Source of the DNA: Ctena decussata
Lineage: Eukaryota; Mollusca; Bivalvia; Lucinida; Lucinidae
DNA length: 64,000 nt
NCBI GenBank assembly: GCA_963989385.1
Contig: OZ022501.1
Location: 99,160,502-99,224,501, forward strand
Direction: 5' to 3'
Shown: positions 15,674 through 64,000 of the stretch, piece after piece
Numbering within the stretch: the first letter of the stretch is position 1
Layout: every line of letters begins with the position of its first letter
Made by a program: the position numbers and the translations under genes
Notes under the pieces: model-generated
Databases searched by the model: none
What the model was told of the DNA's origin: nothing
Seen by the model: only the letters and a program-made list of their open reading frames with translations

Positions 15674-18600
15674 TTAATTAACTTGAAATCGTTTTGTGTT
15701 TATCAAGTAGTCCTGGACGGCAGTGAAGATATGCTGATTCAGGGTTAACGCAAGTGCTGGGTTACCAAATAATAGTGTATTAAAAGTTGGTTCGCAGTAA
15801 TGAGAGACGGCATTTATGAGATCACGTCTTTGATCACCATACCGAGTACAATCAAACAAATAATGGTGTGTGTTTTCTACCTCACCACAAACACACAGTG
15901 GGCTGTCCACTAGATTTTTTGAGAACAAGTGCTCATTTAATGAGCTGCAATGGGTTCTCAATCTAGCATGATAAATCTGACCTAGACGGGAGCCAGAGTT
16001 GTAATATGCAGGAGGTTTAGTAATATCGACATTTAATTTGCATCTAAATGTGCCCAAACTGTTCGAATCGCGCACGTCTTGCGGGAGTTCATTCCATTCT
16101 CGCGTAACTGATGGAAGGAACGAATTAAAATATAATTGTGTATTTGCATGTATCAGGTGTATATCTGAAGCATTTCGCAAGTGGTATGCTGAAGTGCTTC
16201 CAACAGTTGGCGGGACTAATGAGGACAGGTAATCAGGTGACAAATTATTTTGCATTTTGTAAAATAATTGGAGTTTGTGTTTTTTCCTACGCTTAGCTAG
16301 AGTTTCCCAACCAGTTTCTGCAATAAGTGAATTAAGTGATACCAGTTTTGTGGCGCCAGTCACAATCCGAGCTGCTTCGTTTTGTATTTTTTCAAGTTCG
16401 GACACCTCGTACTGTGTACAGTTGTCCCAGACAACGTCGGCGTACTCCAGCAGAGGTCTAACGAAAGAAAAGTATATTGTTTGTAAGGACAGCCTATCAA
16501 GAGTAAATTTTAATTTTCGCATAATATTAATTCGAAACCATGCTTTTTGCTTAACGGAGTCTAGGTGTTCATGCCATGTACAATCACTGGTAAAGGTTAG
16601 GCCTAAATGTTTATGGTCAGTCACTTCGGTTATTACATTATGGTTCATACTTACAGGTGGATGATATGGTCTATTTTGCTTCCGAGTAAATAAAAGTGAT
16701 TCTGGCTTAGCTGGGTTAAATGTAACTAACCACTTTGAGGCCCACTGGTGCACTTTTTCAAGGTCTGCATTAAGTTGAATTGCTGCTTCAATAGGGTTAT
16801 CTACTATTATATAGAGACTAGTGTCGTCCGCAAAAAGCCTTATACTTGAATCGATAACATCAACAATATCGTTAATGTACACCAAAAATAAGAGTGGGCC
16901 AAGTATTGAGCCCTGGGGAACCCCAGCTTTGATGCTTGTCCATCTGGAAGTTGCACCAGGTAGGACAACTCTTTGTTTTCTGTTACTCAGGTAATCTTCA
17001 AACCAGTCTATGAGAGAATCAGTGACACCAATTGATTTGAGTTTGAACAAAAGACCTTGGTGCCATACCCTATCAAAAGCCTTACTGACGTCACAGAATA
17101 TGGCACGAACTTCTTTTCCCTCATCTAGGGCCTTGCAGAAAGTGTTGTGAATGTCGACAAGTTGGTTTACTGTTGAGTCTGCTGGTACAAATCCAGACTG
17201 TAAGTTAGTTAACAAAGAGTTAGCTTGAAGAAAATTGAAAACATGTTTATGTATTATCTTTTCTAGTGATTTACCTATGGTACTTAAAAGTGAAATTGGT
17301 CTGTAATTAGAAAAGTTCGACGGGTCATTCTTTTTATAAATAGGTGTTACATTAGCTTGTTTCCATAAAGTTGGGACTTTACCTTGTGCCAGGGAGAAGT
17401 TAAAAAGGTCGCAAATAGGAAAGGATAGAGCGGTGGCAGCTTCTTTCAGAAGTCTATTATTTATACAGTCAGGGCCTGCGGCTTTACCAGTTTTTAATGA
17501 TTTAAATATTGATTCAACTTCAAAGGGTGTAGTTGACACTGAACTAAGAGTAGAGGCCGGGATAGGAATCACTGAGGGTAGAGAGGCGTTAGTTTCATCT
17601 AGTATTGTTTGCTCCGTAAAAAAAGTATTAAATATATTAGCTTTATCATTAGGGTCAGAGTAAATGACATCGTCTTTGTTTAACGGCGGAATGGCTGATG
17701 TTTGTCCGGGTTTAATGAGATTTTTTAGAGTTTTCCACCAGTCTTTCGAGTTAATATTATCATTTCTAAGTTTCTGTGCTAATTTGTCAGTTTCAAGTAC
17801 CTTTGCCTTCCTTATAGCTGCAGTTACTTTATTTCGCGTTTGCTTATAGCTTTCAAAGTCGGTACTAGATTTTGTTCTTTTATATTTATCATAGAGGCGT
17901 TTTCTTTTTCTCATAAGTTTCTTTATATTATTGCAAAGCCAGGGTGGATCTGATTGACGGCTTTTAATTAGTTTGTTTGGGATGTGCTTCTTAGCTAATT
18001 TAGTTATATGGTTAGTTAAGTCTTGGGCATATTTATCAATATCATTACTCTTAATATCATCCCAGTTTGTTTGCCTAATATCATTAGAAAAAGCTTCGTA
18101 GTCCCCCCTATCATAAAGCCAAATATGCCTTTCATATGAGGATGTAACAGTTTTGTTAAAATTGAATACACAGTATATAGGGCAGTGGTATCTTATGTTT
18201 TGTTCCAAGAAGGGCTCACCAACACCGCTTAATAATATAGTATCCTTTTTTGTTGTAAGAAATAAGTCAATAATTGAAGACGAGGATTCTGTATAATGTG
18301 TTGGTTCATTTATGAGCTGTTCAAGGTTAAACTGTTGACAAATGTCGTTTACTTTTCTTTTAGAAGTTTGTTTAAGCATATCAAGATTGAAATCTCCAGT
18401 AATGAGAATATTCTCTATGTCTGTGTCGAAAGCTAGGCCTATGGAATTTTCAATGGATGTCAGGGTAGCAGGAGTTGAATTAGGAGGTCTGTAAAAAGTA
18501 CCTATAAGAACCTTTCTGTTGCGATTATGAATTTCTAGCCAAATACATTCTACGTCTGCCATTTCAAGGTCATTCCTGCGCCGTGAATATAGTTCCTTCT

Positions 18601-19027
18601 TAGCAAAAACACAAATGCCACCGTAAGCATCCCTTGCTCGGTCCCGACGATACAAGCTATATTCATTTAATACTAATATATCATCACTAGTTCGCTGGTC
18701 AAGCCAAGTTTCTGTCAGGCAAATTACGTCGAAGTTAAATAGCTCTGACTCAATGGTTCCAATTTTAGGTAATAAACTTTGCACGTTGTAGTGGATGACT
18801 GAAAATTTGTTTCTTATTATATCTTCAAACTGGGTTGAAATGCTTGAAGAGGAAGAGACGCTGTCAGTATCAGGACCAGGATTCAGTTCAACATCTCCTG
18901 ATTTTAAGAGCAACAGGGACAAAATTATCAAAAATTCGAAAGACGTCAAGTAATCAAGACCCTTAATTTTGTTATGACGACTGTAATGTAGGCCTATCCG
19001 CATCCTATAGACTGCTATAGGGTCCAT
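15674..19027 (-). CDS. LINE polyprotein: 2A leader, APE endonuclease, RT, Zn tail
   Basis: Residues 26-43 are strongly hydrophobic (FLIILSLLLL) and run into a 2A peptide, DVELNPGP (45-52). Residues 75-290 form an apurinic-type endonuclease: HYNVQSL (N81), LTETWL (E106), GDFN (211-214), IIDLFLT (D254) and YHC (H281) in the place of the usual catalytic His. The reverse transcriptase spans about 510-790: palm Asp in FCDVSKAFD (D646), GVPQGSILGP (702-711) and FADD (732-735). The carboxy end has LRTHCSSLN and a C-x-C-x7-H...C cluster (C1045, C1047, H1054 or H1055, C1060) common in Jockey/CR1-like proteins. It would nick the target and prime reverse transcription of its own RNA in the nucleus. 2A skipping would release a ~51-residue hydrophobic leader from the enzyme. 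Start chosen at 19027 because TAA lies immediately upstream in frame. Confidence 0.95.
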   Translation of the reverse strand: MDPIAVYRMRIGLHYSRHNKIKGLDYLTSFEFLIILSLLLLKSGDVELNPGPDTDSVSSSSSISTQFEDIIRNKFSVIHYNVQSLLPKIGTIESELFNFDVICLTETWLDQRTSDDILVLNEYSLYRRDRARDAYGGICVFAKKELYSRRRNDLEMADVECIWLEIHNRNRKVLIGTFYRPPNSTPATLTSIENSIGLAFDTDIENILITGDFNLDMLKQTSKRKVNDICQQFNLEQLINEPTHYTESSSSIIDLFLTTKKDTILLSGVGEPFLEQNIRYHCPIYCVFNFNKTVTSSYERHIWLYDRGDYEAFSNDIRQTNWDDIKSNDIDKYAQDLTNHITKLAKKHIPNKLIKSRQSDPPWLCNNIKKLMRKRKRLYDKYKRTKSSTDFESYKQTRNKVTAAIRKAKVLETDKLAQKLRNDNINSKDWWKTLKNLIKPGQTSAIPPLNKDDVIYSDPNDKANIFNTFFTEQTILDETNASLPSVIPIPASTLSSVSTTPFEVESIFKSLKTGKAAGPDCINNRLLKEAATALSFPICDLFNFSLAQGKVPTLWKQANVTPIYKKNDPSNFSNYRPISLLSTIGKSLEKIIHKHVFNFLQANSLLTNLQSGFVPADSTVNQLVDIHNTFCKALDEGKEVRAIFCDVSKAFDRVWHQGLLFKLKSIGVTDSLIDWFEDYLSNRKQRVVLPGATSRWTSIKAGVPQGSILGPLLFLVYINDIVDVIDSSIRLFADDTSLYIIVDNPIEAAIQLNADLEKVHQWASKWLVTFNPAKPESLLFTRKQNRPYHPPVSMNHNVITEVTDHKHLGLTFTSDCTWHEHLDSVKQKAWFRINIMRKLKFTLDRLSLQTIYFSFVRPLLEYADVVWDNCTQYEVSELEKIQNEAARIVTGATKLVSLNSLIAETGWETLAKRRKKHKLQLFYKMQNNLSPDYLSSLVPPTVGSTSAYHLRNASDIHLIHANTQLYFNSFLPSVTREWNELPQDVRDSNSLGTFRCKLNVDITKPPAYYNSGSRLGQIYHARLRTHCSSLNEHLFSKNLVDSPLCVCGEVENTHHYLFDCTRYGDQRRDLINAVSHYCEPTFNTLLFGNPALALTLNQHIFTAVQDYLINTKRFQVN
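18872..18895 (-). other. 2A ribosome-skipping motif in the LINE ORF
   Basis: Encodes D-V-E-L-N-P-G-P, an exact match to the 2A consensus D(V/I)EXNPGP, preceded by LLLLKSG. In known 2A peptides the Gly-Pro bond is not formed and translation resumes at Pro. Residues 45-52 of the ORF. Such leaders occur in APE-type non-LTR elements of echinoderms and molluscs (established knowledge). Confidence 0.92.
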
Positions 19028-29958: not shown

Positions 29959-31614
29959 CTATAGTCTGCTCAAAATTACTATCTCAGAATTGTCACAATT
30001 CTTCTCAGTATAGGCATTATTAGCAGTGGTTCCCATCTCCACCGCGGGTGATTCCGATATTTTAGCAGACGACTTTGACAATTGTGACACTGTAACGTCT
30101 ACTGATAGCTGAGACGATTCATTTGAAATTTGGCTCGAAGTTTCTGTCTCAGCACTTTTGTAGTTCTTTTCAGTATTGTCATCAGCGGTAGTTTCCATAA
30201 CAACGGCTGATGAATCCGCCGCATCAGCAGACGACTTTGACGACTTGGAAACTGTGGTGTCCACTGATGGGCGAGACGATTTCTTTGTAATGCTGCTCGA
30301 ATCATCCGTCTCCGCACTTTGATAGTTCTCAGTATGCCCATTAGAAACAGTTCCCATAACAACAGCCGGTGTTGCCGCTACTGCAGCAGACGACATTGAC
30401 AACTGGGACACCGTCGTGTCCACTGAAGGTCGAGATGATTTCTTTGAAAAACTACTGATGCTGCTTGATCGTGTACTGCTCCCAAAAACACTCTCAAGAC
30501 CTGGTTTCCTGCAGCAGAAGAGCCCGAATATTTCCCGCCGAAATTTCGAGCCGCTGAGAACATAGAAAATAAAATTGCAGGTGGCATTTAAATAACCAAC
30601 ACAATTCACAACGGCATGCCAAAAGATCAAGTACTCCATGTCGGCCCGAGCTTGTAGAGACTCTTCAAGAGAAGTTATGTCTCTAGAAGTAATCGCTTTT
30701 ATCCAGTAGGGTTGGCCAATGAAATAAATTGACACAGGGGCCAGGCAAATAAAGAACAAAACACACAGACAAATGAGTAACACAGTGACGACGTTGTTGT
30801 CTCTTTCAATTGAACGTAACGTATTGCCTTGGCCTACACTCATACGTCGACGATGTCGTCTGGTCAAAGTAAGTTTTACAATAATTATAATATTGCATGT
30901 TGTAAGAATAATAAACGGAACAGCAAAAGCTACAAGAAAATCTATCCACGGCCAAACGTCATCGGAAAAATCTTGATATTTCGAAGTCTTAGGCCAGCAA
31001 GGATGGTACACGTCTCTTCCTTGCAAGGCCGATTGCTCCCTGACATAGCCGTAGCCTATCCCGAATAGAAAATGACCGTTTAACAAAATAAGAACTCCAG
31101 CTGTTGACACAATAGCTATGGCCGCCACTTTCACTGTGCTAATAGATTTGATGCGATGGGGCATTATTACACTTAACACACGTTCCAGTGTCACAGCAAC
31201 TAGCAGCCATGATGAGAAGTGAACGCTTGAGTATGTGAGAAATGTATGGATTCTGCAACTTGCCTCATTTTCTTGTCGAATATCCATTCCATTCCAATCT
31301 TTATTATGTAATATCCATTGTCGTAATGGCCCCGTGTATAAGACTAAAAGATCTGAGAAAGCCAAGCAAAGCAGAAACAGCGATGTTGGAGAAAGAATTT
31401 GCCGAAATATTTGCCGGAAAATGACTATAATTGTTAACACATTTCCAACTGTGCCTATTGACATTATAAACGGCGGCACGTATGTCCAAATTTCTGTGGT
31501 AACGTTAAAATAGTATCCGGGTGGCGGTTCTCCCATGAACATAGGGGGTGGCCCCGGCGGCGGCATGGAACCATTTTCATGTGGGATGGCGGAGGTATTT
31601 TCTGTCGAATTCAT
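29959..31614 (-). CDS. Class A neuropeptide-type G-protein-coupled receptor
   Basis: A 551-residue single-exon receptor, plausibly plasma-membrane, peptide-liganded (FMRFamide/TRH-receptor-like; the exact ligand cannot be read). Seven hydrophobic segments: TM1 ~45-67 with GNVL (N58), TM2 ~78-97 with LAFSDLL (D88), TM3 ~122-146, TM4 ~162-180, TM5 ~222-248 with P233, TM6 ~275-299 with FFICLAP (P293), TM7 ~329-353 with NFIFY (347-351) in place of NPxxY. C120 and C206 fit the conserved disulfide. The DRY motif is ERV (144-146) and TM4 lacks the usual Trp. The N-tail has four NxS/T sites (N2, N6, N14, N37) and a Pro-rich stretch. C367/C368 after helix 8 could be palmitoylated. The tail from 391 is three Ser-rich repeats. 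The first ATG of the open frame gives a complete N-tail. Confidence 0.92.
   Translation of the reverse strand: MNSTENTSAIPHENGSMPPPGPPPMFMGEPPPGYYFNVTTEIWTYVPPFIMSIGTVGNVLTIIVIFRQIFRQILSPTSLFLLCLAFSDLLVLYTGPLRQWILHNKDWNGMDIRQENEASCRIHTFLTYSSVHFSSWLLVAVTLERVLSVIMPHRIKSISTVKVAAIAIVSTAGVLILLNGHFLFGIGYGYVREQSALQGRDVYHPCWPKTSKYQDFSDDVWPWIDFLVAFAVPFIILTTCNIIIIVKLTLTRRHRRRMSVGQGNTLRSIERDNNVVTVLLICLCVLFFICLAPVSIYFIGQPYWIKAITSRDITSLEESLQARADMEYLIFWHAVVNCVGYLNATCNFIFYVLSGSKFRREIFGLFCCRKPGLESVFGSSTRSSSISSFSKKSSRPSVDTTVSQLSMSSAAVAATPAVVMGTVSNGHTENYQSAETDDSSSITKKSSRPSVDTTVSKSSKSSADAADSSAVVMETTADDNTEKNYKSAETETSSQISNESSQLSVDVTVSQLSKSSAKISESPAVEMGTTANNAYTEKNCDNSEIVILSRL
29962..30444 (-). repeat. Three in-frame ~160-bp repeats in the GPCR tail
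   Basis: Residues 391-443, 444-497 and 498-551 align: KKSSRPSVDTTVSQLS, KKSSRPSVDTTVSKSS, NESSQLSVDVTVSQLS, followed in each by a PAVVMG/SAVVMET/PAVEMGT segment and (T/Y)xxEN(Y/C). All are Ser/Thr-rich, hence likely phosphorylation/arrestin-type tail. The repeat length preserves frame. Confidence 0.85.
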
Positions 31615-31713
31615 TCTTCAAAGCCTCTAACATGAAGTTAACACACGTATTCCATATTATTACTTAAATTTGGAATCAAGAGGCTGTGAATTTCATGTCA
31701 TTAGTTTCCCCGG

Positions 31714-37570: not shown

Positions 37571-37654
37571 TAGAATATGTTCTATAAAAGGGTTATCCTT
37601 TGGAAACAAGGATCACACCAAAGAACTGAAAAATGTCGAGTGTACAAGTTTTCT

Positions 37655-37700
37655 GGGCCAGACTAGCTAGTTTCGGCCAATTAGGCCTCATCAGTGACCC
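37655..37700 (-). ncRNA. Type I hammerhead ribozyme, unit 1
   Basis: Minus strand: stem I strand GGGUCA, core CUGAUGA, stem II GGCC-UAAUU-GGCC, core GAAA, stem III ACUA-GC-UAGU (A15.1 and U16.1 included), cleavage nucleotide C after GU (site GUC), then UGGCCC closing stem I (six pairs, one G-U). Predicted cut between 37661 and 37660. All invariant core nucleotides are present. The two-nucleotide stem III loop implies action in cis within a dimer or concatemer. Confidence 0.93.
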
Positions 37701-37915
37701 TCAAATATTTTTAAAGTTATACAATGGAATCAATGATTCCAAAGGACTAGAAAATAAAATCTACACTAGGATGAAGGGCAGGGAGACTTTTTACGGTGAC
37801 CACACAGTCCCAATCACCAGCTGTAGTGAAGTTCAATATGTTCTATAAAAGGGTTATCCTTTGGAAGCAAGGATCACACCAAAGAACTGAAAAATGTCGA
37901 GTGTACAAGTTTTCT

Positions 37916-37961
37916 GGGCCAGACTAGCTAGTTTCGGCCAATTAGGCCTCATCAGTGACCC
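37916..37961 (-). ncRNA. Type I hammerhead ribozyme, unit 2
   Basis: Identical core, stems II and III and stem I to unit 1. Predicted cut between 37922 and 37921. In a B-type unit: the sequence just 5' of stem I on the RNA differs from A units by a 10-bp deletion. Confidence 0.93.
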
Positions 37962-38166
37962 TCAAGTTAATACAATGGAATCAATGATTCCAAAGGACTA
38001 GAAAATAAAATCTACACTATGATGAAGGGCAGGGAGACTTTTTACGGTGACCACACAGTCCCAATCACCAGCTGTAGTGAAGTTCAATATGTTCTATAAA
38101 AGGGTTATCCTTTGGAAGCAAGGATCACACCAAAGAACTGAAAAATGTCGAGTGTACAAGTTTTCT

Positions 38167-38212
38167 GGGCCAGACTAGCTAGTTTCGGCCAATTAGGCCT
38201 CATCAGTGACCC
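38167..38212 (-). ncRNA. Type I hammerhead ribozyme, unit 3
   Basis: Same 46-nt motif. Predicted cut between 38173 and 38172, 251 nt from the previous site. Confidence 0.93.
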
Positions 38213-38427
38213 TCAAATATTTTTAAAGTTATACAATGGAATCAATGATTCCAAAGGACTAGAAAATAAAATCTACACTAGGATGAAGGGCAGGGAGACT
38301 TTTTACGGTGACCACACAGTCCCAATCACCAGCTGTAGTGAAGTTCAATATGTTCTATAAAAGGGTTATCCTTTGGAAGCAAGGATCACACCAAAGAACT
38401 GAAAAATGTCGAGTGTACAAGTTTTCT

Positions 38428-38473
38428 GGGCCAGACTAGCTAGTTTCGGCCAATTAGGCCTCATCAGTGACCC
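38428..38473 (-). ncRNA. Type I hammerhead ribozyme, unit 4
   Basis: Same 46-nt motif. Predicted cut between 38434 and 38433, 261 nt from the previous site. Confidence 0.93.
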
Positions 38474-38678
38474 TCAAGTTAATACAATGGAATCAATGAT
38501 TCCAAAGGACTAGAAAATAAAATCTACACTATGATGAAGGGCAGGGAGACTTTTTACGGTGACCACACAGTCCCAATCACCAGCTGTAGTGAAGTTCAAT
38601 ATGTTCTATAAAAGGGTTATCCTTTGGAAGCAAGGATCACACCAAAGAACTGAAAAATGTCGAGTGTACAAGTTTTCT

Positions 38679-38724
38679 GGGCCAGACTAGCTAGTTTCGG
38701 CCAATTAGGCCTCATCAGTGACCC
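38679..38724 (-). ncRNA. Type I hammerhead ribozyme, unit 5
   Basis: Same 46-nt motif. Predicted cut between 38685 and 38684. The array ends 86 bp further on the plus strand, so this unit is partial. Confidence 0.93.
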
Positions 38725-38810
38725 TCAAATATTTTTAAAGTTATACAATGGAATCAATGATTCCAAAGGACTAGAAAATAAAATCTACACTAGGATGAAG
38801 GGCAGGGAGA

Positions 38811-40427: not shown

Positions 40428-41120
40428 TAGGACAGGTGCTTGCTTAATACGGGTACATTTCAATGTATTTGCCTTTATCGGAAACTGAATGCATGCTTGC
40501 TTAATACAAGATGTTCGCTAAGACAGGTTTTACTGTTTGTGATAGTGTGTAGCAGCTATAAGAAACATGCTCGCGATGTCGCGTGGTATTTGCCTGGGTG
40601 CTTGCTTAGGATAGGTACATGTCAATATATTTGCCTTTATCGGAAACTGAATACATGTTTGCTTAATACAGGTTGTTCGCTTAGACAGGTTTTACTGTTT
40701 GAGATAATGTGAAGTAGCTATAAGAAACATGCTCGCGATGTCGCATGGTATCAGCCCGGGTGCATGCTTAGGGTTGGTGCTTGCTTAATACAGGTACATG
40801 ACAATATATTTGCCTTTATCGGAAACTAAATACATGTTTGCTTAATACAGGTTGTTCGCTTAGACAGTTTTTGCTGTTTGTGATAATGTGAAATAGCTTT
40901 AAGACACATGCTAGCGATGTCACATGGTATCAGCCCGGGTGCATGCTTAGGGTAGGTGCTTGCTTAATACAGGTACATGACAATATATTTGCCTTTATCG
41001 GAAACTGAATACATGTTTGCTTAATACAGGTTGTTCGCTTAGACAGGTTTTACTGTTTGTGATAATGTGAAGTAGCTTTAAGAAACATGCTCGCGATGTC
41101 GCGTTGTACCAGTCCGGGTA
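40428..41120. repeat. Four-unit tandem repeat, 162-179 bp
   Basis: GCCTTTATCGGAAACTGAAT occurs at 40471, 40633, 40812 (variant) and 40991. Each unit also has GGTGCTTGCTTAATACAGG, TTGTTCGCTTAGACAGG and CATGCTCGCGATGTCGC. No ribozyme core or coding potential found. Confidence 0.85.
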
Positions 41121-50643: not shown

Positions 50644-50920
50644 GCCGGGCCGCGTAGCGCAATCGGTAGGGCACCTGACTCGTAAGTAGGAGGTCCTAGG
50701 TTCGAAATCCGGTCTGGCCACATACTTTCGTTTCTCCTTCCGCTGATTCAAGAAGGGCAGTTGTCAGTTACTGGCGAAAGAATGTGCTCTTAGTACTGGT
50801 TAACCGCTTAGAAGGTCTACGCCTGCCCAGGAATAGTGTGCTTAGGTTAACTGACCGTCCCGACATGACCTTAGCTGTTTACCGTGGACGATAAGCCTCA
50901 AATCAACCAACCAAAAAATA
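50644..50920 (+). repeat. tRNA-derived SINE
   Basis: The head (50644-50720) folds as a tRNA: acceptor GCCGGGC/GTCTGGC, A box TAGCGCAATCGG, anticodon loop CTCGTAA (CGT, Thr-like), B box GGTTCGAAATCC. It continues ~200 bp into a body (CTGCCCAGGAATAGTG, ACTGACCGTCCCGACATGAC) and ends in CAAATCAACCAACCAA. The body and tail mark it as a Pol III-transcribed SINE. Confidence 0.82.
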
Positions 50921-51016
50921 ACTCGAAGTCCGTACCTGATACCTTAGTGACGATTTTATTTTTGTTACGGACACAGAAAATATAAGATCACATCCCCTTT
51001 CTAAAGAGACGCCTAT

Positions 51017-52171
51017 ATGATCAAGAAATCCATTTTAACCAAAAGCTGGCATAGGTGTGGATGTGGAAAAGCGGGAGGGGAGGAACGAACTCGCAATACA
51101 TGGGCAACAAAATGGTTAGTTACTTTTAATCCCCTTAAAACAGAGGAAATGATTTTCTCAAGGAAATTAAACAAACCACAACATCCGCCTATACACATGA
51201 ACCAACAGCCAATTGCACAAGTAAGCTCTCATAAACACCTAGGACTCACCTTTTCTGAAGACTTATCATGGAACGAGCACTTTGAATATATCAAATCTAA
51301 GGCTTGGAGCCGTATAAACATCATGCGTAAGCTTAAGTTTCAGCTCGACAGAAAATCTCTCCAAACAATTTATTTCTCTTTTATTAGACCTCTTTTGGAG
51401 TATGCAGATGTTGTCTGGGACAACTGTTTTCAGTATGAAGCAAATGAGTTGGAAAAAATTCAATATGAGGCCGCCAGAATTGTTACTGGTGCGACTAAAC
51501 TGGTATCAATTAATAATTTGTTAAAAGAAACTGGGTGGGAACTACTTTCAACCAGAAGAAAAAAGCATAAACTCACACTTTTCTACAAAATGAATAATGG
51601 CTTAAGTCCCAATTACTTGACCTCATTGGTCCCTCCAACTGTCGGTAACAACACCACTTATAGTCTTCGAAACGCTACAAATATCCAAACCATTCATGCT
51701 AAATCGCAGCTTTACTATAACTCATTTCTCCCGTCCGTTATTCGAGACTGGAACGATCTACCAATGGACACTCGTAACGCAAGCAGTTTAAATTCCTTCA
51801 AGTATAAATTAAACACTGACGTAAAACTTCCGCCCGTATATTTTAATGATGGTATTCGCCACGGTCAGAAATACCATTCTCGGCTCAGAACCGGCTGTAG
51901 CTCTCTGAACTGTCATCTCTATGAAAAACATATAATTGATAGTCCGCTATGCAATTGTGGTCAGGTCGAAGACACAAAACATTATTTACTTCAGTGTAAT
52001 GGATATGCAGATCTTAGAAGAGATATGCTTAACACTATATCTACTTTTTGTCCACCAACTATCAATACATTACTTTGGGGTAACTTTGAGCTTTCACGCG
52101 AATCAAATAAAGAAATTTTCTTAACTGTTCAGAAGTTTATATTGAAAACTAAGCGCTTTGAAATACAGTAA
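51017..52171 (+). pseudogene. LINE ORF remnant, post-RT and Zn-tail
   Basis: From WATKWLVTFN (about 51101) the frame is homologous to residues 762-1117 of the LINE at 15674-19027: SHKHLGLTF, IYFSFIRPLLEYADVVWDN, ARIVTGATKLVS, LFYKMNNGLSPNYLTSLVPP, LRTGCSSLN, C-N-C-G-Q...H-Y-L-L-Q-C and a KRFEIQ end. The first ~27 codons are unrelated flank. The frame is intact but lacks endonuclease and polymerase motifs, so it is inert. Confidence 0.9.
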
Positions 52172-56634: not shown

Positions 56635-57105
56635 GAGCCGCAACACGAGAACCCAAACAAAGTAGCATGTGCGCCCAGCGAAGACTCAGAGACGGACACC
56701 CGCCCAGTCTGATCAAGGTCTTTGATGCACGCAAGCAGGAGCAAGCTTAGACCTTAGCTATCATTTGAGAATAAAGCGAAGACTTTGATCACACTGGGTA
56801 GATACCCAGACTGAGTTGAGTTCCAAGGCGGCAGCTTTGTTTGGTTCGTTTTGGTTGTTTTATGTGTTGTTTGTTGCTATGTCTGTTATTGATATATTGT
56901 TTGTGATTTTTAGGCTAGCTCGTTAACCACCTACATGGGAAATGGCTGTTCACATAGCTGCCGCTGGAGTTATTTTGTGTTGTCTCTTTCCCACATGGTG
57001 TCGTGGGTTGGATCTGGAATTAAATTGTGTCAGTTCCTGAGAAATTTCCTACTTACTTTGGCTGGAAGCACATGCCACTTTGTTGTTTTTGTCGTGTCGC
57101 AGCTC
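56635..57105. mobile_element. Hairpin MITE interrupted by a retroelement tail
   Basis: The termini and first arm are intact. About 230 bp (56830-57060) of foreign sequence replaces most of the right arm. It resembles the 3' tail of the element at 60240-60424 (ACCACCTACATGGGAAATGG, GTTGGATCTGGAATTAAATT, GTGTCAGTTCCTGAG). Confidence 0.75.
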
Positions 57106-57153
57106 ATTCATTAGGAAGTGCTGTCAGGTCAACCTAAATATTCGACAATACTT

Positions 57154-57755: not shown

Positions 57756-58808
57756 ATCACTTTTGCTACAAACATGACAAACATTATCGCTTATGTTATC
57801 AAATTGTATTAGCACTGTGATTTTAATAGAAATCTTCAGATAAAGATCCCAAATGACTAAACAATGGTAATGTACCATCATACTTCACGTTTCATTATGC
57901 CCACTGTATTTAATGACAGTATTAATGTTGTTGATATTATTCACAATTCCGCGGAGGCCTCAGGAAAATTTTACGAATCACTTGTGAGCATTGAAATTGA
58001 TAAAAACTTCATTCATTATTCATAACATTGTATTATGACCATTAAGTTCTGTCACACACGGTCAAGTATCAATATTTGTGTCATCGATAAATTGCTTAAC
58101 TTGCGATTTCGCAATAAATTTATTTTTGCACATTTACCAACTTTTGCAAAAATTAGGCCTCGCATACCGTAAACACGGTAATTTTCGGGGTTCCAATTTC
58201 CGCGATTAATGGTCAAAAACATACACATTAATTTTCGCGATGTAAAATTTTCGCGGTTAGCAACATGCACGAAAAGCAAAGCTACGCTTTTTTCACAATA
58301 ATAATTTCCTGTTTCTTACCAGGTATCTCCTGTAGACACAATGTTCATATATTTCGTTTCTGTTTGCTTCGGAAATTGCTGGTTCTTTCATTATCCTGCA
58401 GCGGCCCTGAGTTTTTCTGTGTCATTGACGGCACTTCCCCTTGACAGCCGCCTTGGCGTAAAATGAAAGGAGACGATAAACAGCCTTCCACGTTGACTGA
58501 AAATGTCATGTCACTGTAAAGATCACGACATAAAACCAATCATCTCCTCTTATTCCATCCAGATAAAACTCTCTGCTCTTGAAGGAACTGCGTAATATTT
58601 TAATTTTACCTCACTGCAGCTGGTGTTCTACCGTGTGGCGGCCGTAAAACATCTCCCCGTACATCATCCATAGTGCAGATTATACATTGTTTTCGTCCTT
58701 TGAGATCAGAGGATACATTCTGAGAAATCTAACGTTTGAGATTGATTTAGACAATTATTAAAGATCATCGTCTGTTACATTAATTGGATCCTGATTGATA
58801 CTAATTAG
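57756..58808. repeat. TTCGCGG-type repeat, otherwise unassigned
   Basis: 58090-58262 repeats TTTCGCGATT/AATTTTCGCGG words around TACCGTAAACACGGTAATTT. A similar cluster (GTTCGCGGTGTAAATGTTCG) lies at 61935-62050. These look like halves of one hairpin MITE family. Confidence 0.5.
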
Positions 58809-60424
58809 TCTAAGTTACACAGACAAATTGTAGGAATTCCGATGGGTACTAACTGCGCTCCTCTTATAGCAGATTTGTTTCTATTTTGCTATGAAAGAGA
58901 TTTTATAATGTCTCTTTCTGATGATACTCAAGTTCATGTCATTGAAGCATTCAACTCAACGTCTAGATACTTGGACGACCTTTTAAATATTGACAATCCT
59001 TAACTTGTTTTGAAGGATCGGTTAGTCAAATTTATCCTGCTGAATTGCAGTTAAATAAAGCAAATACTTCTGATACCGAGGCTCCATTTTTGGATTTACA
59101 TTTATCAATTTTAGACGGATTCGTTTCATCTAAAATTTATGACAAACGCGATGATTTTGATTTCGACATTGTTAATTTTCCGTTTTTGGATGGTGATGTT
59201 CCCCGCACCACTTCTTATGGTGTTTACATTTCTCAGTTTATTTGCTTCGCTAGGGTGTCTAGTCATTTGGCTGATTTCAATCCTCGTAATAAAAGTTTGA
59301 CTGCCAAACTGTTACAGCAGGTGTTTCGGTATCATAAACTTCGGAAAGCTTTTTCTAAATTTTATCGTGGACACTTTGAATTGTTTTCTAAATATAATAC
59401 AGGGTTAAGGTCACTTTTGCAACAAGGCCTATCGGAACCTGAATTTTATGGTGACTTAGTATATAAATTACGCAAAATCATAGGGAAACAGAATTTCCTG
59501 ATCAATTTAAGAAAATTATCATGCGATTTAAACGCATTGGCTATAACATAGATGTAATGCGACAGTCTGCATGCTTAATGGTTAACCCAATCCTTGACGG
59601 TTGACAACTTTGCTGTCCTCTTTAATTGCACGCCGGTGGGTCGGGGTTCAGACTGTATGACAGCCCCTACATAAAGCTATATATTAGTTGGTTGGGGCCG
59701 GATGTTTTTCTGTTTCTTGGCCCACCAACAAATTGTGTGCACCGCGGCGGAGGGTGAGGGTGAAAGTTTGGGCCCAGTAAAACCGGTTTAAACCCCCAGT
59801 AGTTATTACTGACCGTCCCAAGGTGGTACTTTCGTTGCGGTTGCATTTGTGTTATGTTCAGTGTGGTTTAACTTATTGTGCTTTCATCTTAACCCTTCTT
59901 TAATTTAAAAAAAATATAGAAAATAAGTAAAAATAGTTGTTAATTGTTTTCCGTATAATTTCTTTAGTCTGTTGTGTGGTACATGTGTGCACCGCGGCGG
60001 AGGGTGCGGGTGAAGGTTTGGGCCCAGTAAAACCGGTTTAACCCCCCCCCTCAGTAGTTATTACTGACCGTCCCAAGGCGGTACTTTTGTTGCGGTTGCA
60101 TTTGTTTTATGTTCGGTGCTGTTTAATTACTGTGTTCTTATTTTAACCATTCTATACTAAAAATAGAACATAGGTAAAAATAGTTGTTAAATGTATTTCG
60201 TATGATATGTTTAGTCTGTTGTAACCCTTCTGTTGGTCTCAATTATTTAGTTCAATAAAGATAGCTGAGTTGCCACCTATTTAAGAAAGAGCTGCTGACT
60301 CGGCTAATCACTTGTAATTTATTGTTTGTTGGGATGTCTTTGTCAGTCTATCCCTTTGATGTTGGGGATAGGAATTGGGATCTGATTCAGTCAGTTCCTG
60401 AAGTGTTGTTACTCTTTAAATTTG
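58809..60424 (+). pseudogene. Frameshifted YLDD reverse transcriptase plus 3' tail
   Basis: Translating from 58809 gives GIPMGTNCAPLIADLFLFCY and YLDD (58968-58979), the RT palm. A frameshift near 59000 is followed by QIYPAELQLNKANTSDTEAP, FLDLHLSI, YDKRDDFDFDIVNFPFLDGD, YGVYISQFICFARVSSH and SEPEFYGDLVYKLRKI. Further shifts near 59490 and 59590 separate KIIMRFKRIGYNIDVMRQSA and FNCTPVG. The family is common in invertebrates. Whether it is Penelope-like is not decidable here, and no GIY-YIG domain is visible. Downstream, a ~440-bp tail beginning GTGTGCACCGCGGCGGAGGG is present one and a half times (59733-59978, 59990-60424). Confidence 0.8.
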
Positions 60425-61904
60425 AAGCGACTGCAAATTAAAATTAAGAAATTACAGTGTGCTTTCCTTTGGTTTCGTCACCAGATATTGTGAGGGTCAC
60501 TGACGAGGCTTTATTAGCCGAAACTATGTAGTCTGGCCCATGTTCCTTCTTCTGAATGTATTCTCTGCTCTTGAAGGAACTATTTAAGATTTTAATTAGA
60601 AGCAGCTCATGTTTAACAATGTCAAATACTTCTTGTATGATTAGTGTGACTACAAACAAATGCTCATTTGTATCCCTTGCTTCATTGATACATTATGTGA
60701 GAATGACCCCAAATGATGACCATCCAGCCGTGAAAACTTTTGAAGTGATTACGTTCAGGTAAAATATTATACAAAGAACAGGTATCACTGGAATTCCCAT
60801 GTATAAATCAAAGGGTCAGATTATATTCCTTTTTGTAGATTGGGTAGATAATCTTTTTGTTTTCAAAACTGGAAAAAATGGCATTTTCTTGACTATTTAA
60901 TGCAGTACACATAGTAAGCAACCTTTTAAAGGGCCTTTACCGAACATAAAAACGCCCACATAAAATGTCCATAATGTTAGCACCTTTATTACATACTTCG
61001 GACAACAGTTCCCTCTCTGGATTCTACAGTGCAGGATTATAAGCTAGGGTGAGTTTCTCTTGTGGTTTCTCAAAGTTACATGTTATGTCCGCGTGTCTAT
61101 GGTCTCGAGCAATTTGGTCACCTAGCTAGCTGTCCATTCTGCTTTCTTTTTTGTTTTGTTTTGTTTTGTAATTAAGAAAAGAAAAAAGGTACACTGCTGC
61201 TGCTGATTTTTGATTGGGGAAGCTATATGACCACCTATTTGGGAAAAAGATGTTCATTCGGTTTGCCGTGCGAGTCTATCGTACACTTTTGCCAGGCGGG
61301 GTGTGGAATTTGATTGTGCTAATTCCTGATCATTGTCTATTTTTTTCCTTTTCATACTACTTCGCTTTTATTATCAGCCTTCCATGGTGAAATGGTGTTA
61401 AAAAGATCGTAAAACCACAAGTCATTCATTCATCTGAACCTTGCGGTACATTGTGCTACCTTGTGACACCATATGCAATTCTGCGGTATTTCATATGATC
61501 GTTCACAATATCTATGCGAACAGCGCTCATGCCATATGCGAACCGACTCTCTGTCACTGAAGCTCCTTTAAATATTAAGACAATAAAATAACATGGTACG
61601 GTCACCTTCGATCGCAGCATAAAGGCCAAGCTTCATTGTAGATAACTAATAGCTGTATTCTCATGTCTGAGTCGATGACTAGACTGTCTACGCCCATAGA
61701 CAATAACACCTCGACTTTCGAGACTTATCCTGTACCATTATCTGCAAATTAATATATATAGTCGATTTCAAGCAAACATGCACTATTCGATGCATGTATA
61801 TAACCTAGAATGACTATGTAAGAAGGAGTTTACATCTGCAAATCCGTTCAAAGTTTATCTTTTTCATTACCATGTCTCTCTTGCAGAGAAGAATTCATAA
61901 TCCC
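60425..61904. other. No gene; fragments of the retroelement tail
   Basis: TTCTCTGCTCTTGAAGGAAC at 60557 recurs at 58568, and 61200-61330 (GACCACCTATTTGGGAAAAA, GGAATTTGATTGTGC) is a diverged tail copy. Nothing else recognised. Confidence 0.45.
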
Positions 61905-63324: not shown

Positions 63325-63979
63325 CTGTTTCTTGGCCCACCGGGGTTCAACTGGTGGTCTTCTTTTGCTCCAGTACACCAGTGGTGTTGCTGACGCCCCA
63401 GGGATCTCCGGGTGTCTCAACACATTTTGGCTGTCGAGTCCTCATCCTTGTTTCATCATGGTCTTTTCTTGATCTTAATTGTTGACCGTGATGACTCTCT
63501 GATGAGTTAGGGGACATCCATACGAACCGAACTACCAACTAATTGTGTGCACCGCAGCGGAGGGTGAGGGTGAAGGTTTAGGCCCAGTAAAACCGGTTTA
63601 AACCCCCCAGTAGTTATTACTGACCGTCCCAAGGCGGTACTTTTATTGCGGTTGCATTTGTTTTATGTTCGGTGCTGTTTAATTTATGGTGTTCTCAGTT
63701 TAATCCTTCTATCATAAAAATAGAAAATAGGTAAAAATAATTGTTAAATGTTTTTCATATAATTTGCTTAGTCCGTTGTAACCCGTCTGTTGGTCTAAAT
63801 TGTTTAGTTCAATAAAGATAGCTGAGTTGCCATCTATTTGGGAAAGAGCTGCTGACTCGGCTTATCACTTGTAATTTATTGTTTGTTGGGATGTCTTTGT
63901 CAATCTTTCCCTTTGATGTTGGGGATAGGGTTTGGGATCTGATTCAGTCAGTTCCTGAAGTGTAGTTACTCTTTAAATT
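63325..63979 (+). mobile_element. 3' portion of the YLDD retroelement, second copy
   Basis: Starts TCTGTTTCTTGGCCCACC (as at 59710), has ~190 bp absent from the first copy, then GTGTGCACCGCAGCGGAGGG and the whole tail to GTTACTCTTTAAATTT, where homology with 60424 stops. This defines the 3' end of the family. Confidence 0.8.
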
Positions 63980-64000
63980 TATTAAGATTGTCCCTTGTCA

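What the first reader, a model, noticed from the sequence alone, without database searches (positions are those of the whole stretch)
37574..38810. Five tandem type I hammerhead ribozymes: a retrozyme-like element
Seen: every unit has, on the minus strand, CUGAUGA, a four-pair stem II, GAAA, a four-pair stem III with a 2-nt loop, a GUC cleavage site and a six-pair stem I, all in correct order. No invariant core base is missing. Known: small tandem arrays with type I hammerheads in animals are transcribed, self-cleave and yield circular RNAs. Inference: this locus emits 251- and 261-nt self-cleaved RNAs from the minus strand. The very short stem III suggests a dimeric ribozyme, favouring concatemer processing.
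Basis: partly seen in the sequence, partly recalled or inferred. Interest (0 to 1): 0.93.

Follow-up and report, generated by a model that had tools for sequence, protein, structure and literature searches.

The report
Retrozyme array sharing Penelope element parts
This stretch of an apparent animal genome is a small tandem array of self-cutting RNA units, a known kind of mobile element, and its sequence suggests that it descends from a type of jumping gene found nearby (a Penelope-like element) and uses that element's copying machinery.

Summary
Five exact type I hammerhead (HHR) motifs lie on the minus strand of a 1,237-bp array (37574-38810) of alternating 251- and 261-bp units; 0 of 100 simulated windows had one as good. 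Rfam does not reach its gathering score (HH9, 18.9 vs 52 bits). All six differences between the two HHRs respect the fold; two form a compensatory stem II change. A second, non-ribozyme segment of the unit (90-188) also matches that PLE (58608-58708; 0 of 500 shuffles). The array's sense 3' end and the PLE copy's 3' end fall on the same homologous base, 87 nt past the HHR cut in the array; a purified PLE starts reverse transcription 85-92 nt past its cut (PMC11167929). I read this as a metazoan retrozyme reduced from, and mobilised by, a PLE: an HHR plus an RT-start module. RNA activity, circles and copy number could not be tested; no TSD was found; the genome-search tool did not complete.

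The parts
37574..38810 (-). Tandem retrozyme array, 4.8 units of alternating 251/261 bp; sense strand is minus
   Evidence: TRF; unit dissection and alignment
38679..38724 (-). Hammerhead 1 (cut between 38685 and 38684)
   Evidence: descriptor, alignment, cut coordinate
38428..38473 (-). Hammerhead 2 (cut 38434/38433)
38167..38212 (-). Hammerhead 3 (cut 38173/38172)
37916..37961 (-). Hammerhead 4 (cut 37922/37921)
37655..37700 (-). Hammerhead 5 (cut 37661/37660)
38497..38595 (-). Body segment (unit 90-188) shared with the PLE at 58608-58708; further copies at 38246-38344, 37985-38083, 37734-37832
   Evidence: blastn 73.8% over 103 columns, E 8e-9 (coordinates of the four copies); 0 of 500 shuffles reach the score
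37574..37660 (-). Sense 3' end of the array: ends at unit position 87, proposed reverse-transcription start
58570..58605 (+). PLE leader, upstream copy of the 36-nt terminal repeat, followed after two bases by the body segment
   Evidence: blastn vs 60562-60597, 88.9%, E 6e-7
58608..58708 (+). PLE segment homologous to the retrozyme body
58809..59671 (+). Decayed PLE reverse transcriptase remnant (GIPMGTNCAPL, YLDD); 5' part missing, frame broken, internal stops
   Evidence: tblastn with 5 homologues; protein search
59649..59712 (+). SECIS element overlapping the end of the RT reading frame
   Evidence: Rfam RF00031, 38.6 bits, gathering 35
59734..60423 (+). PLE 3' region with a direct repeat of about 245 bp; recurs at 63534-63980
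   Evidence: blastn
60494..60539 (+). Sixth hammerhead, in the PLE; compensatory change in stem II; cut after 60533
60562..60597 (+). PLE downstream copy of the 36-nt repeat; the copy ends at 60597
   Evidence: no significant homology beyond 60597

Best explanation
A metazoan non-LTR retrozyme that is a stripped-down derivative of a Penelope-like element. Two modules are kept from the PLE: a type I hammerhead, acting best as a dimer, and about 100 nt lying just 3' of the place where the PLE reverse transcriptase starts copying. Minus-strand multimeric transcripts cut themselves at GUC into 251/261-nt (and, if incompletely cut, 512-nt) RNAs, which a host ligase may close into circles. A PLE RT supplied in trans binds the body module, starts at unit position 87 and runs round a circle or along a multimer, laying down tandem copies. 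Shown here: motifs, array structure, shared PLE segments, coincident 3' ends. Inferred: cleavage, circles, RT binding, mobilisation in trans.
For: Five perfect HHRs, none as good in 100 simulated windows. Sixth HHR in a PLE, 88% identical over 50 nt; all 6 differences are tolerated, which only 180 of 200,000 random sets of six changes achieve under the core and pairing rules I set. Body segment homology: 52.7 bits, best of 500 shuffles 38.3; second control 0 of 1000. Array 3' end (unit 87) and PLE 3' end (60597 = 58605) are both 3 nt before the body start (unit 90 = 58608); past 60597 the PLE does not continue into the body (114 and 135 of 1000 shuffles as good under two scorings). The array end is 87 nt past the HHR cut; in PAc, a Poseidon PLE, the cut is at +26 and RT starts at +111-118, i.e. 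85-92 nt, and the RNA needed reaches +172 (PMC11167929, main-text section read). HHR dimer is the computed minimum. Cervera & de la Pena 2020 propose PLEs as strong candidates to mobilise retrozymes, from co-occurrence, tandem order and shared HHRs.
Against: No expression data. In the PLE copy the cut-to-end distance is 64 nt, not 85-92, and the start region is not AC-rich (0.48 and 0.43 A+C, unit overall 0.46) as in PAc. The match of a second PLE tail (63534-63980) stops about 70 nt before the HHR position, though the window ends 20 nt later. No TSD in 80-bp flanks. Unit 8-87 and 189-218 show no PLE homology. The 251-nt monomer folds no better than shuffles (z -0.45) and forcing the local HHR costs 2.7-6.8 kcal/mol. 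Rfam models do not reach their cut-off. The ABABA order needs a dimeric or multimeric template. PAc insertion did not need HHR cleavage. Only one PLE copy, itself decayed, was compared.
Confidence: 0.68

Rival explanations
1. Ordinary satellite DNA: a PLE-derived fragment with an HHR was amplified at the DNA level by unequal crossing-over; the ribozyme is a passenger.
For: The ABABA order with 100% identical 512-bp dimers is what DNA-level duplication of a dimer gives; no TSD; one array only in this window.
Against: Differences between array and PLE ribozymes are confined to tolerated positions; the array's 3' end lies on the same base as the PLE copy's 3' end.
Confidence: 0.16
2. A retrozyme mobilised by a LINE rather than a PLE.
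For: A 1117-aa LINE ORF with endonuclease and RT domains lies in the window at 15674-19027(-), and large LINE-like TSDs are reported for Nematostella repeats (PMC4918200, passages).
Against: No blastn match of the unit within the LINE ORF even at E 10; no TSD here; both shared segments belong to the PLE.
Confidence: 0.12
3. DNA copy of an independent viroid-like or HDV-like RNA replicon.
For: Small, HHR-bearing, non-coding circle-sized units.
Against: No ribozyme found on the other polarity of the array; ordinary folding stability; longest ATG-started ORF in three joined 251-nt units 35 aa; homology to a retroelement explains part of the sequence.
Confidence: 0.03

Closest known systems
Metazoan non-LTR retrozymes (Cervera & de la Pena 2020, PMC7229834)
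   Same: Tandem units of 150-450 bp with one type I HHR each, low GC, no LTRs seen, two size variants through an indel (compare the 20-nt indel in Acropora, whose place I did not see).
   Different: HHR has a very short, palindromic stem III that favours dimers, described there for amphibians and not for most invertebrate retrozymes; part of the body matches a PLE; no TSD; folding not above shuffles.
Minimal hammerheads of Penelope-like elements (Cervera & de la Pena 2014; Lunse 2017; neither held; known here through passages of the review PMC7761336)
   Same: Short helix III, expected to work as dimers, in the terminal region of a PLE; the sixth HHR here looks like one.
   Different: In the array the HHR sits in a free-standing short non-coding tandem repeat.
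PAc, Poseidon PLE of Anolis (PMC11167929, main-text section read)
   Same: HHR followed by an internal RT start 85-92 nt past the cut; array end here at 87 nt.
   Different: PAc is a coding element with a C-terminal endonuclease; its start is AC-rich; its insertion did not need HHR cleavage in vitro.
Naiad (N-terminal endonuclease) PLEs, Craig et al. 2021 (recalled; not held)
   Same: RT frame ends with nothing after it in most printed relatives; SECIS at the end of the reading frame; a CxC-like motif in one long relative, P0318.
   Different: Recalled to lack canonical hammerheads; the copy here has one downstream. Three other long relatives have WDC, not CxC, at that place. Endonuclease not confirmed by any model.
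Plant LTR retrozymes (described in PMC7229834 and PMC4918200 passages)
   Same: Non-autonomous, HHR-bearing, non-coding.
   Different: Type III HHRs, LTRs, dimeric arrangement, 4-bp TSDs; here type I HHRs, no LTR or TSD seen.

Membership tests
Metazoan non-LTR retrozyme | Short tandem repeats (150-450 bp), each with a type I HHR | tested here: met
   251/261-bp units, five HHRs
Metazoan non-LTR retrozyme | GC below 50% | tested here: met
   array GC 0.399
Metazoan non-LTR retrozyme | No LTR, PBS or PPT | tested here: inconclusive
   The 974-bp and 890-bp flanks do not match each other by blastn; PBS/PPT not searched
Metazoan non-LTR retrozyme | TSD longer than 4 bp, when present | tested here: not met
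   No shared direct word of 7 or more in the 80-bp flanks; the published feature is optional
Metazoan non-LTR retrozyme | Highly self-paired monomer | tested here: not met
   61-63% paired; 251-nt unit z -0.45, 70 of 200 shuffles as stable; the 2016 paper speaks of above 70%
Metazoan non-LTR retrozyme | Self-cleavage and linear/circular RNA in tissue | not testable with these tools
   needs transcription assay and RNA
Metazoan non-LTR retrozyme | Dispersed, many genomic copies | not testable with these tools
   The genome search did not complete
Metazoan non-LTR retrozyme | Loop 1-loop 2 tertiary contact (canonical HHR) | not testable with these tools
   Constrained secondary-structure folds do not model tertiary contacts; no known loop motif was looked for
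Hammerhead ribozyme (Rfam) | Covariance-model score above the family's gathering score | tested here: not met
   No hit at gathering; HH9 18.9/18.2 bits against 52
Hammerhead ribozyme (catalytic core) | Invariant core, three stems and NUH site in order | tested here: met
   5 of 5 in the array and the sixth copy
PLE-type minimal dimeric HHR | Very short helix III and better folding as a dimer | tested here: met
   Native dimer is the computed minimum, -43.3 vs -30.2 (array), -33.4 vs -28.4 (60494); activity not tested
Penelope-like element (60494 locus) | PLE-type reverse transcriptase | tested here: inconclusive
   RT-like motifs and thousands of homologues, but no Pfam hit above cut-off in the window piece or in the relatives scanned (best RVT_1 14.3 bits against 29.6 in P0294); PLE assignment rests on recalled motifs
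Penelope-like element (60494 locus) | Terminal pseudo-LTR repeats | tested here: met
   58570-58605 vs 60562-60597, E 6e-7; short
Naiad PLE | N-terminal GIY-YIG endonuclease, CxC, C-terminal RT (recalled) | tested here: inconclusive
   P0318 has CDC and an endonuclease-like stretch before the RT (by eye); P0289, P0293 and P0269 have WDC there; Pfam silent; window copy lacks this part
Viroid-like or HDV-like replicon | Unusually stable (rod-like) fold or ribozymes on both polarities | tested here: not met

The most novel reading that the evidence does not exclude
The retrozyme is a minimal two-module parasite of a SECIS-bearing, N-terminal-endonuclease (Naiad-like) PLE: it keeps only the ribozyme and the RT-start/RT-binding RNA, and tandem arrays arise because the PLE RT starts inside the unit and rolls round a ribozyme-made circle or multimer. 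This would identify the autonomous partner of animal retrozymes and show a hammerhead in a PLE branch recalled to lack it.
Probability: 0.35. Interest if true: 0.75.

Novelty: new variant of a known kind. Interest (0 to 1): 0.56.

Why it matters
Which element moves animal retrozymes is open in the 2020 paper; its case for PLEs rests on co-occurrence, tandem order and shared ribozymes (PMC7229834). Shared non-ribozyme sequence and a shared 3' end turn it into a genome-wide test anyone can run: do retrozyme insertions end at the PLE start site? In the library I could search, no paper holds 'retrozyme', 'Penelope' and 'bivalve' together, nor 'hammerhead', 'Penelope' and 'selenocysteine'. Those are narrow searches; 22 papers hold 'Penelope-like' and 'hammerhead ribozyme', of which I looked into four (PMC11167929, PMC7229834, PMC7761336, PMC4918200), and most subscription papers are not held.

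Tried and rejected
External DNA relatives: five scans of viral contigs, two of genome contigs and one search of phages found none. Host species: not identified. The RT family has at least 8000 homologues (capped; 120 listed); among the listed rows only three carry a name: two Candidatus Thiodiazotropha MAG proteins (P0153; P0328), which I recall as lucinid clam symbionts, and one Campylobacter sp. protein (P0319), all probably host contamination; so a bivalve is a guess. Some listed relatives carry a precomputed PF26215, which hmmscan did not report and which I did not pursue. P0281 carries a precomputed RVT_1 and a weak group II RT match at residues 68-332; whether that is the PLE part was not settled. 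RT structure: AlphaFold model of P0293 had mean pLDDT 48 and was not used. PDB sequence searches gave no credible RT. Covariance counts: only two distinct HHR sequences, so the shuffles are uninformative (235 of 500). A CM built from the six HHRs finds those six, by construction, and one chance-level match at E 3.9. A first HHR alignment used coordinates off by one and was redone. Homology of unit 8-87 and of the segment before the HHR to the PLE, and a degenerate HHR upstream of 58570: not supported. Literature searches that led nowhere.

Full report
What is there. The array at 37574-38810 is a clean tandem repeat. Cut at the ribozyme sites it reads, in the minus (sense) direction, 126 + 251 + 261 + 251 + 261 + 87 nt; full units of one type are identical, the two types differ by 3 mismatches and 10 gap columns, and the last 87 nt carries one private change. 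Each HHR (5 of 5) has stem I GGGUCA/UGGCCC, core CUGAUGA and GAAA, stem II GGCC/GGCC, a self-complementary stem III and a GUC site. A descriptor scan of the 64-kb window, both strands, found six motifs; 100 simulated windows gave two at the same setting (4/3/3 bp) and none at 6/4/4 bp. Rfam gave no ribozyme above gathering in the window and HH9 at 18.9 bits (three units) and 18.2 bits (two units) against 52 in a focused search.

The ribozyme probably works as a dimer. Stem III is the palindrome ACUAGCUAGU. Two copies pair into the native dimeric hammerhead as their computed minimum-energy state, -43.3 kcal/mol, against -30.2 for two separate monomers; the sixth copy behaves alike (-33.4 vs -28.4). 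As single 46-mers another fold wins by 1.8 kcal/mol (array) and 3.3 (sixth copy); in 220-nt contexts forcing the monomer ribozyme costs 6.8 and 2.7 kcal/mol, and 3.3 for the sixth copy in its context. These energies ignore tertiary contacts. The 251-nt unit RNA as a whole is not unusually stable (z -0.45 sense, -0.42 antisense); the 261-nt unit was folded without shuffles.

A sixth ribozyme and a PLE. On the + strand, 60494-60539 holds a sixth HHR. It differs from the array HHR at 6 of 46 positions: the free core position, one stem II pair changed on both sides, one loop II base, two loop III bases. Only 180 of 200,000 random sets of six substitutions keep all the core and pairing rules I set. 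Upstream on the same strand lie a SECIS (59649-59712) and the remains of a reverse transcriptase: tblastn with 5 homologues matches 58809-59000 in one frame and 59009-59671 in another, the second with internal stops. The family has at least 8000 relatives (capped). In 6 of the 7 long relatives first printed and 2 of the 5 printed later the frame runs to the same conserved C-terminus after the RT, with no further domain. One long relative, P0318, has before the RT a CDC motif and a stretch that looks to me like the end of a PLE endonuclease; P0289, P0293 and P0269 have WDC at that place. The domain order and the SECIS suggest the Naiad branch, known to me from recall only (the paper is not held). 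No Pfam model above its cut-off confirms RT or endonuclease in what I scanned, so this assignment rests on motifs read by eye.

The retrozyme shares more than the ribozyme with this PLE. Blastn of a unit dimer against the window finds, outside the array, only two places with E below 0.1: the HHR (60491-60540, E 1e-12) and unit 90-188 at 58608-58708 (73.8%, E 8e-9). The body alone scores 52.7 bits; the best of 500 dinucleotide shuffles reaches 38.3; a second alignment test gives 0 of 1000. The PLE piece is tied to the ribozyme end by a 36-nt direct repeat: 58570-58605, two bases before the body, recurs at 60562-60597, 22 nt past the HHR. So in PLE and retrozyme alike the order is HHR, spacer (about 60 or 82 nt), body. 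The spacer and the 30 nt before the HHR region show no homology.

Shared 3' end. The array ends, in the sense direction, at unit position 87; the PLE copy's terminal repeat ends at 60597, which equals 58605; both lie three bases before the start of the body alignment (unit 90 = 58608). What follows 60597 is not significantly body-like (114 and 135 of 1000 shuffles as good under two scorings). In PAc, a PLE studied in vitro, the hammerhead cuts at +26 and reverse transcription starts at +111-118 inside the template, that is 85-92 nt past the cut; genomic copies end at RT start sites, and RNA up to +172 is needed (PMC11167929, main-text section read in two parts). The array ends 87 nt past the cut, and the shared body lies just 3' of that point. 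The PLE copy here ends 64 nt past its cut, so the distance is not fixed, and the start region is not AC-rich as in PAc. My reading: position 87 is the RT start, and the body is the RNA that the RT recognises. From there a linear monomer would be copied for 87 nt only; a circle or multimer gives tandem units.

Problems. The match of a second PLE tail, 63534-63980, stops before the place of the HHR, with only 20 nt of window left. There is no TSD. The alternating unit order cannot come from one monomeric circle; it needs a dimeric circle, an uncut multimer, or DNA-level duplication. PAc inserted without HHR cleavage. The PLE compared is one decayed copy, probably rearranged, since its leader joins the middle of the RT. 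No relative could be fetched from other collections and the genome search did not complete (nine tries).

Place among known things. Cervera and de la Pena 2020 (PMC7229834; abstract, parts 1 and 2 of 3 of the Results, and the Discussion read; passages) describe animal retrozymes as tandem 150-450-bp repeats with type I HHRs and low GC, giving circular RNAs, and propose PLEs as strong candidates to move them. The array fits; high self-pairing and TSD are not seen, RNA was not tested. They describe dimer-dependent HHRs for amphibians; the 2020 review (PMC7761336, passages) describes minimal HHRs in PLEs that may self-cleave as dimers. An array of such a PLE-type ribozyme with PLE-type body is therefore a variant joining the two. 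It is not a categorically new system.

Noticed in passing
59649-59712 (+): A SECIS above Rfam gathering overlaps the end of the decayed RT frame: the last residues of the family's conserved C-terminus and the following stop lie inside the SECIS, suggesting a transposon selenoprotein.
   Followed up: partly
63534-63980 (+): Second copy (85-94% identical) of the PLE 3' region; the match stops about 70 nt before the position of the HHR, 20 nt from the window end.
   Followed up: partly
15674-19027 (-), 51005-52171 (+): Long LINE ORF with endonuclease and RT domains (Pfam), and an ORF resembling its C-terminal part by eye.
   Followed up: no
57061-57111 and 25 further matches across the window: Abundant short interspersed repeat (blastn E 1e-4 or better), probably a MITE-like family.
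   Followed up: no
40435-41119: Another tandem array, 179-bp period, with no HHR by descriptor or covariance model.
   Followed up: partly
29959-31617 (-): Uninterrupted rhodopsin-type GPCR ORF (7tm_1, E 2.7e-21).
   Followed up: no
50648-50720 (+): tRNA-like sequence above Rfam gathering (31.5 bits) but not called by ARAGORN; possibly a tRNA-derived SINE head.
   Followed up: no
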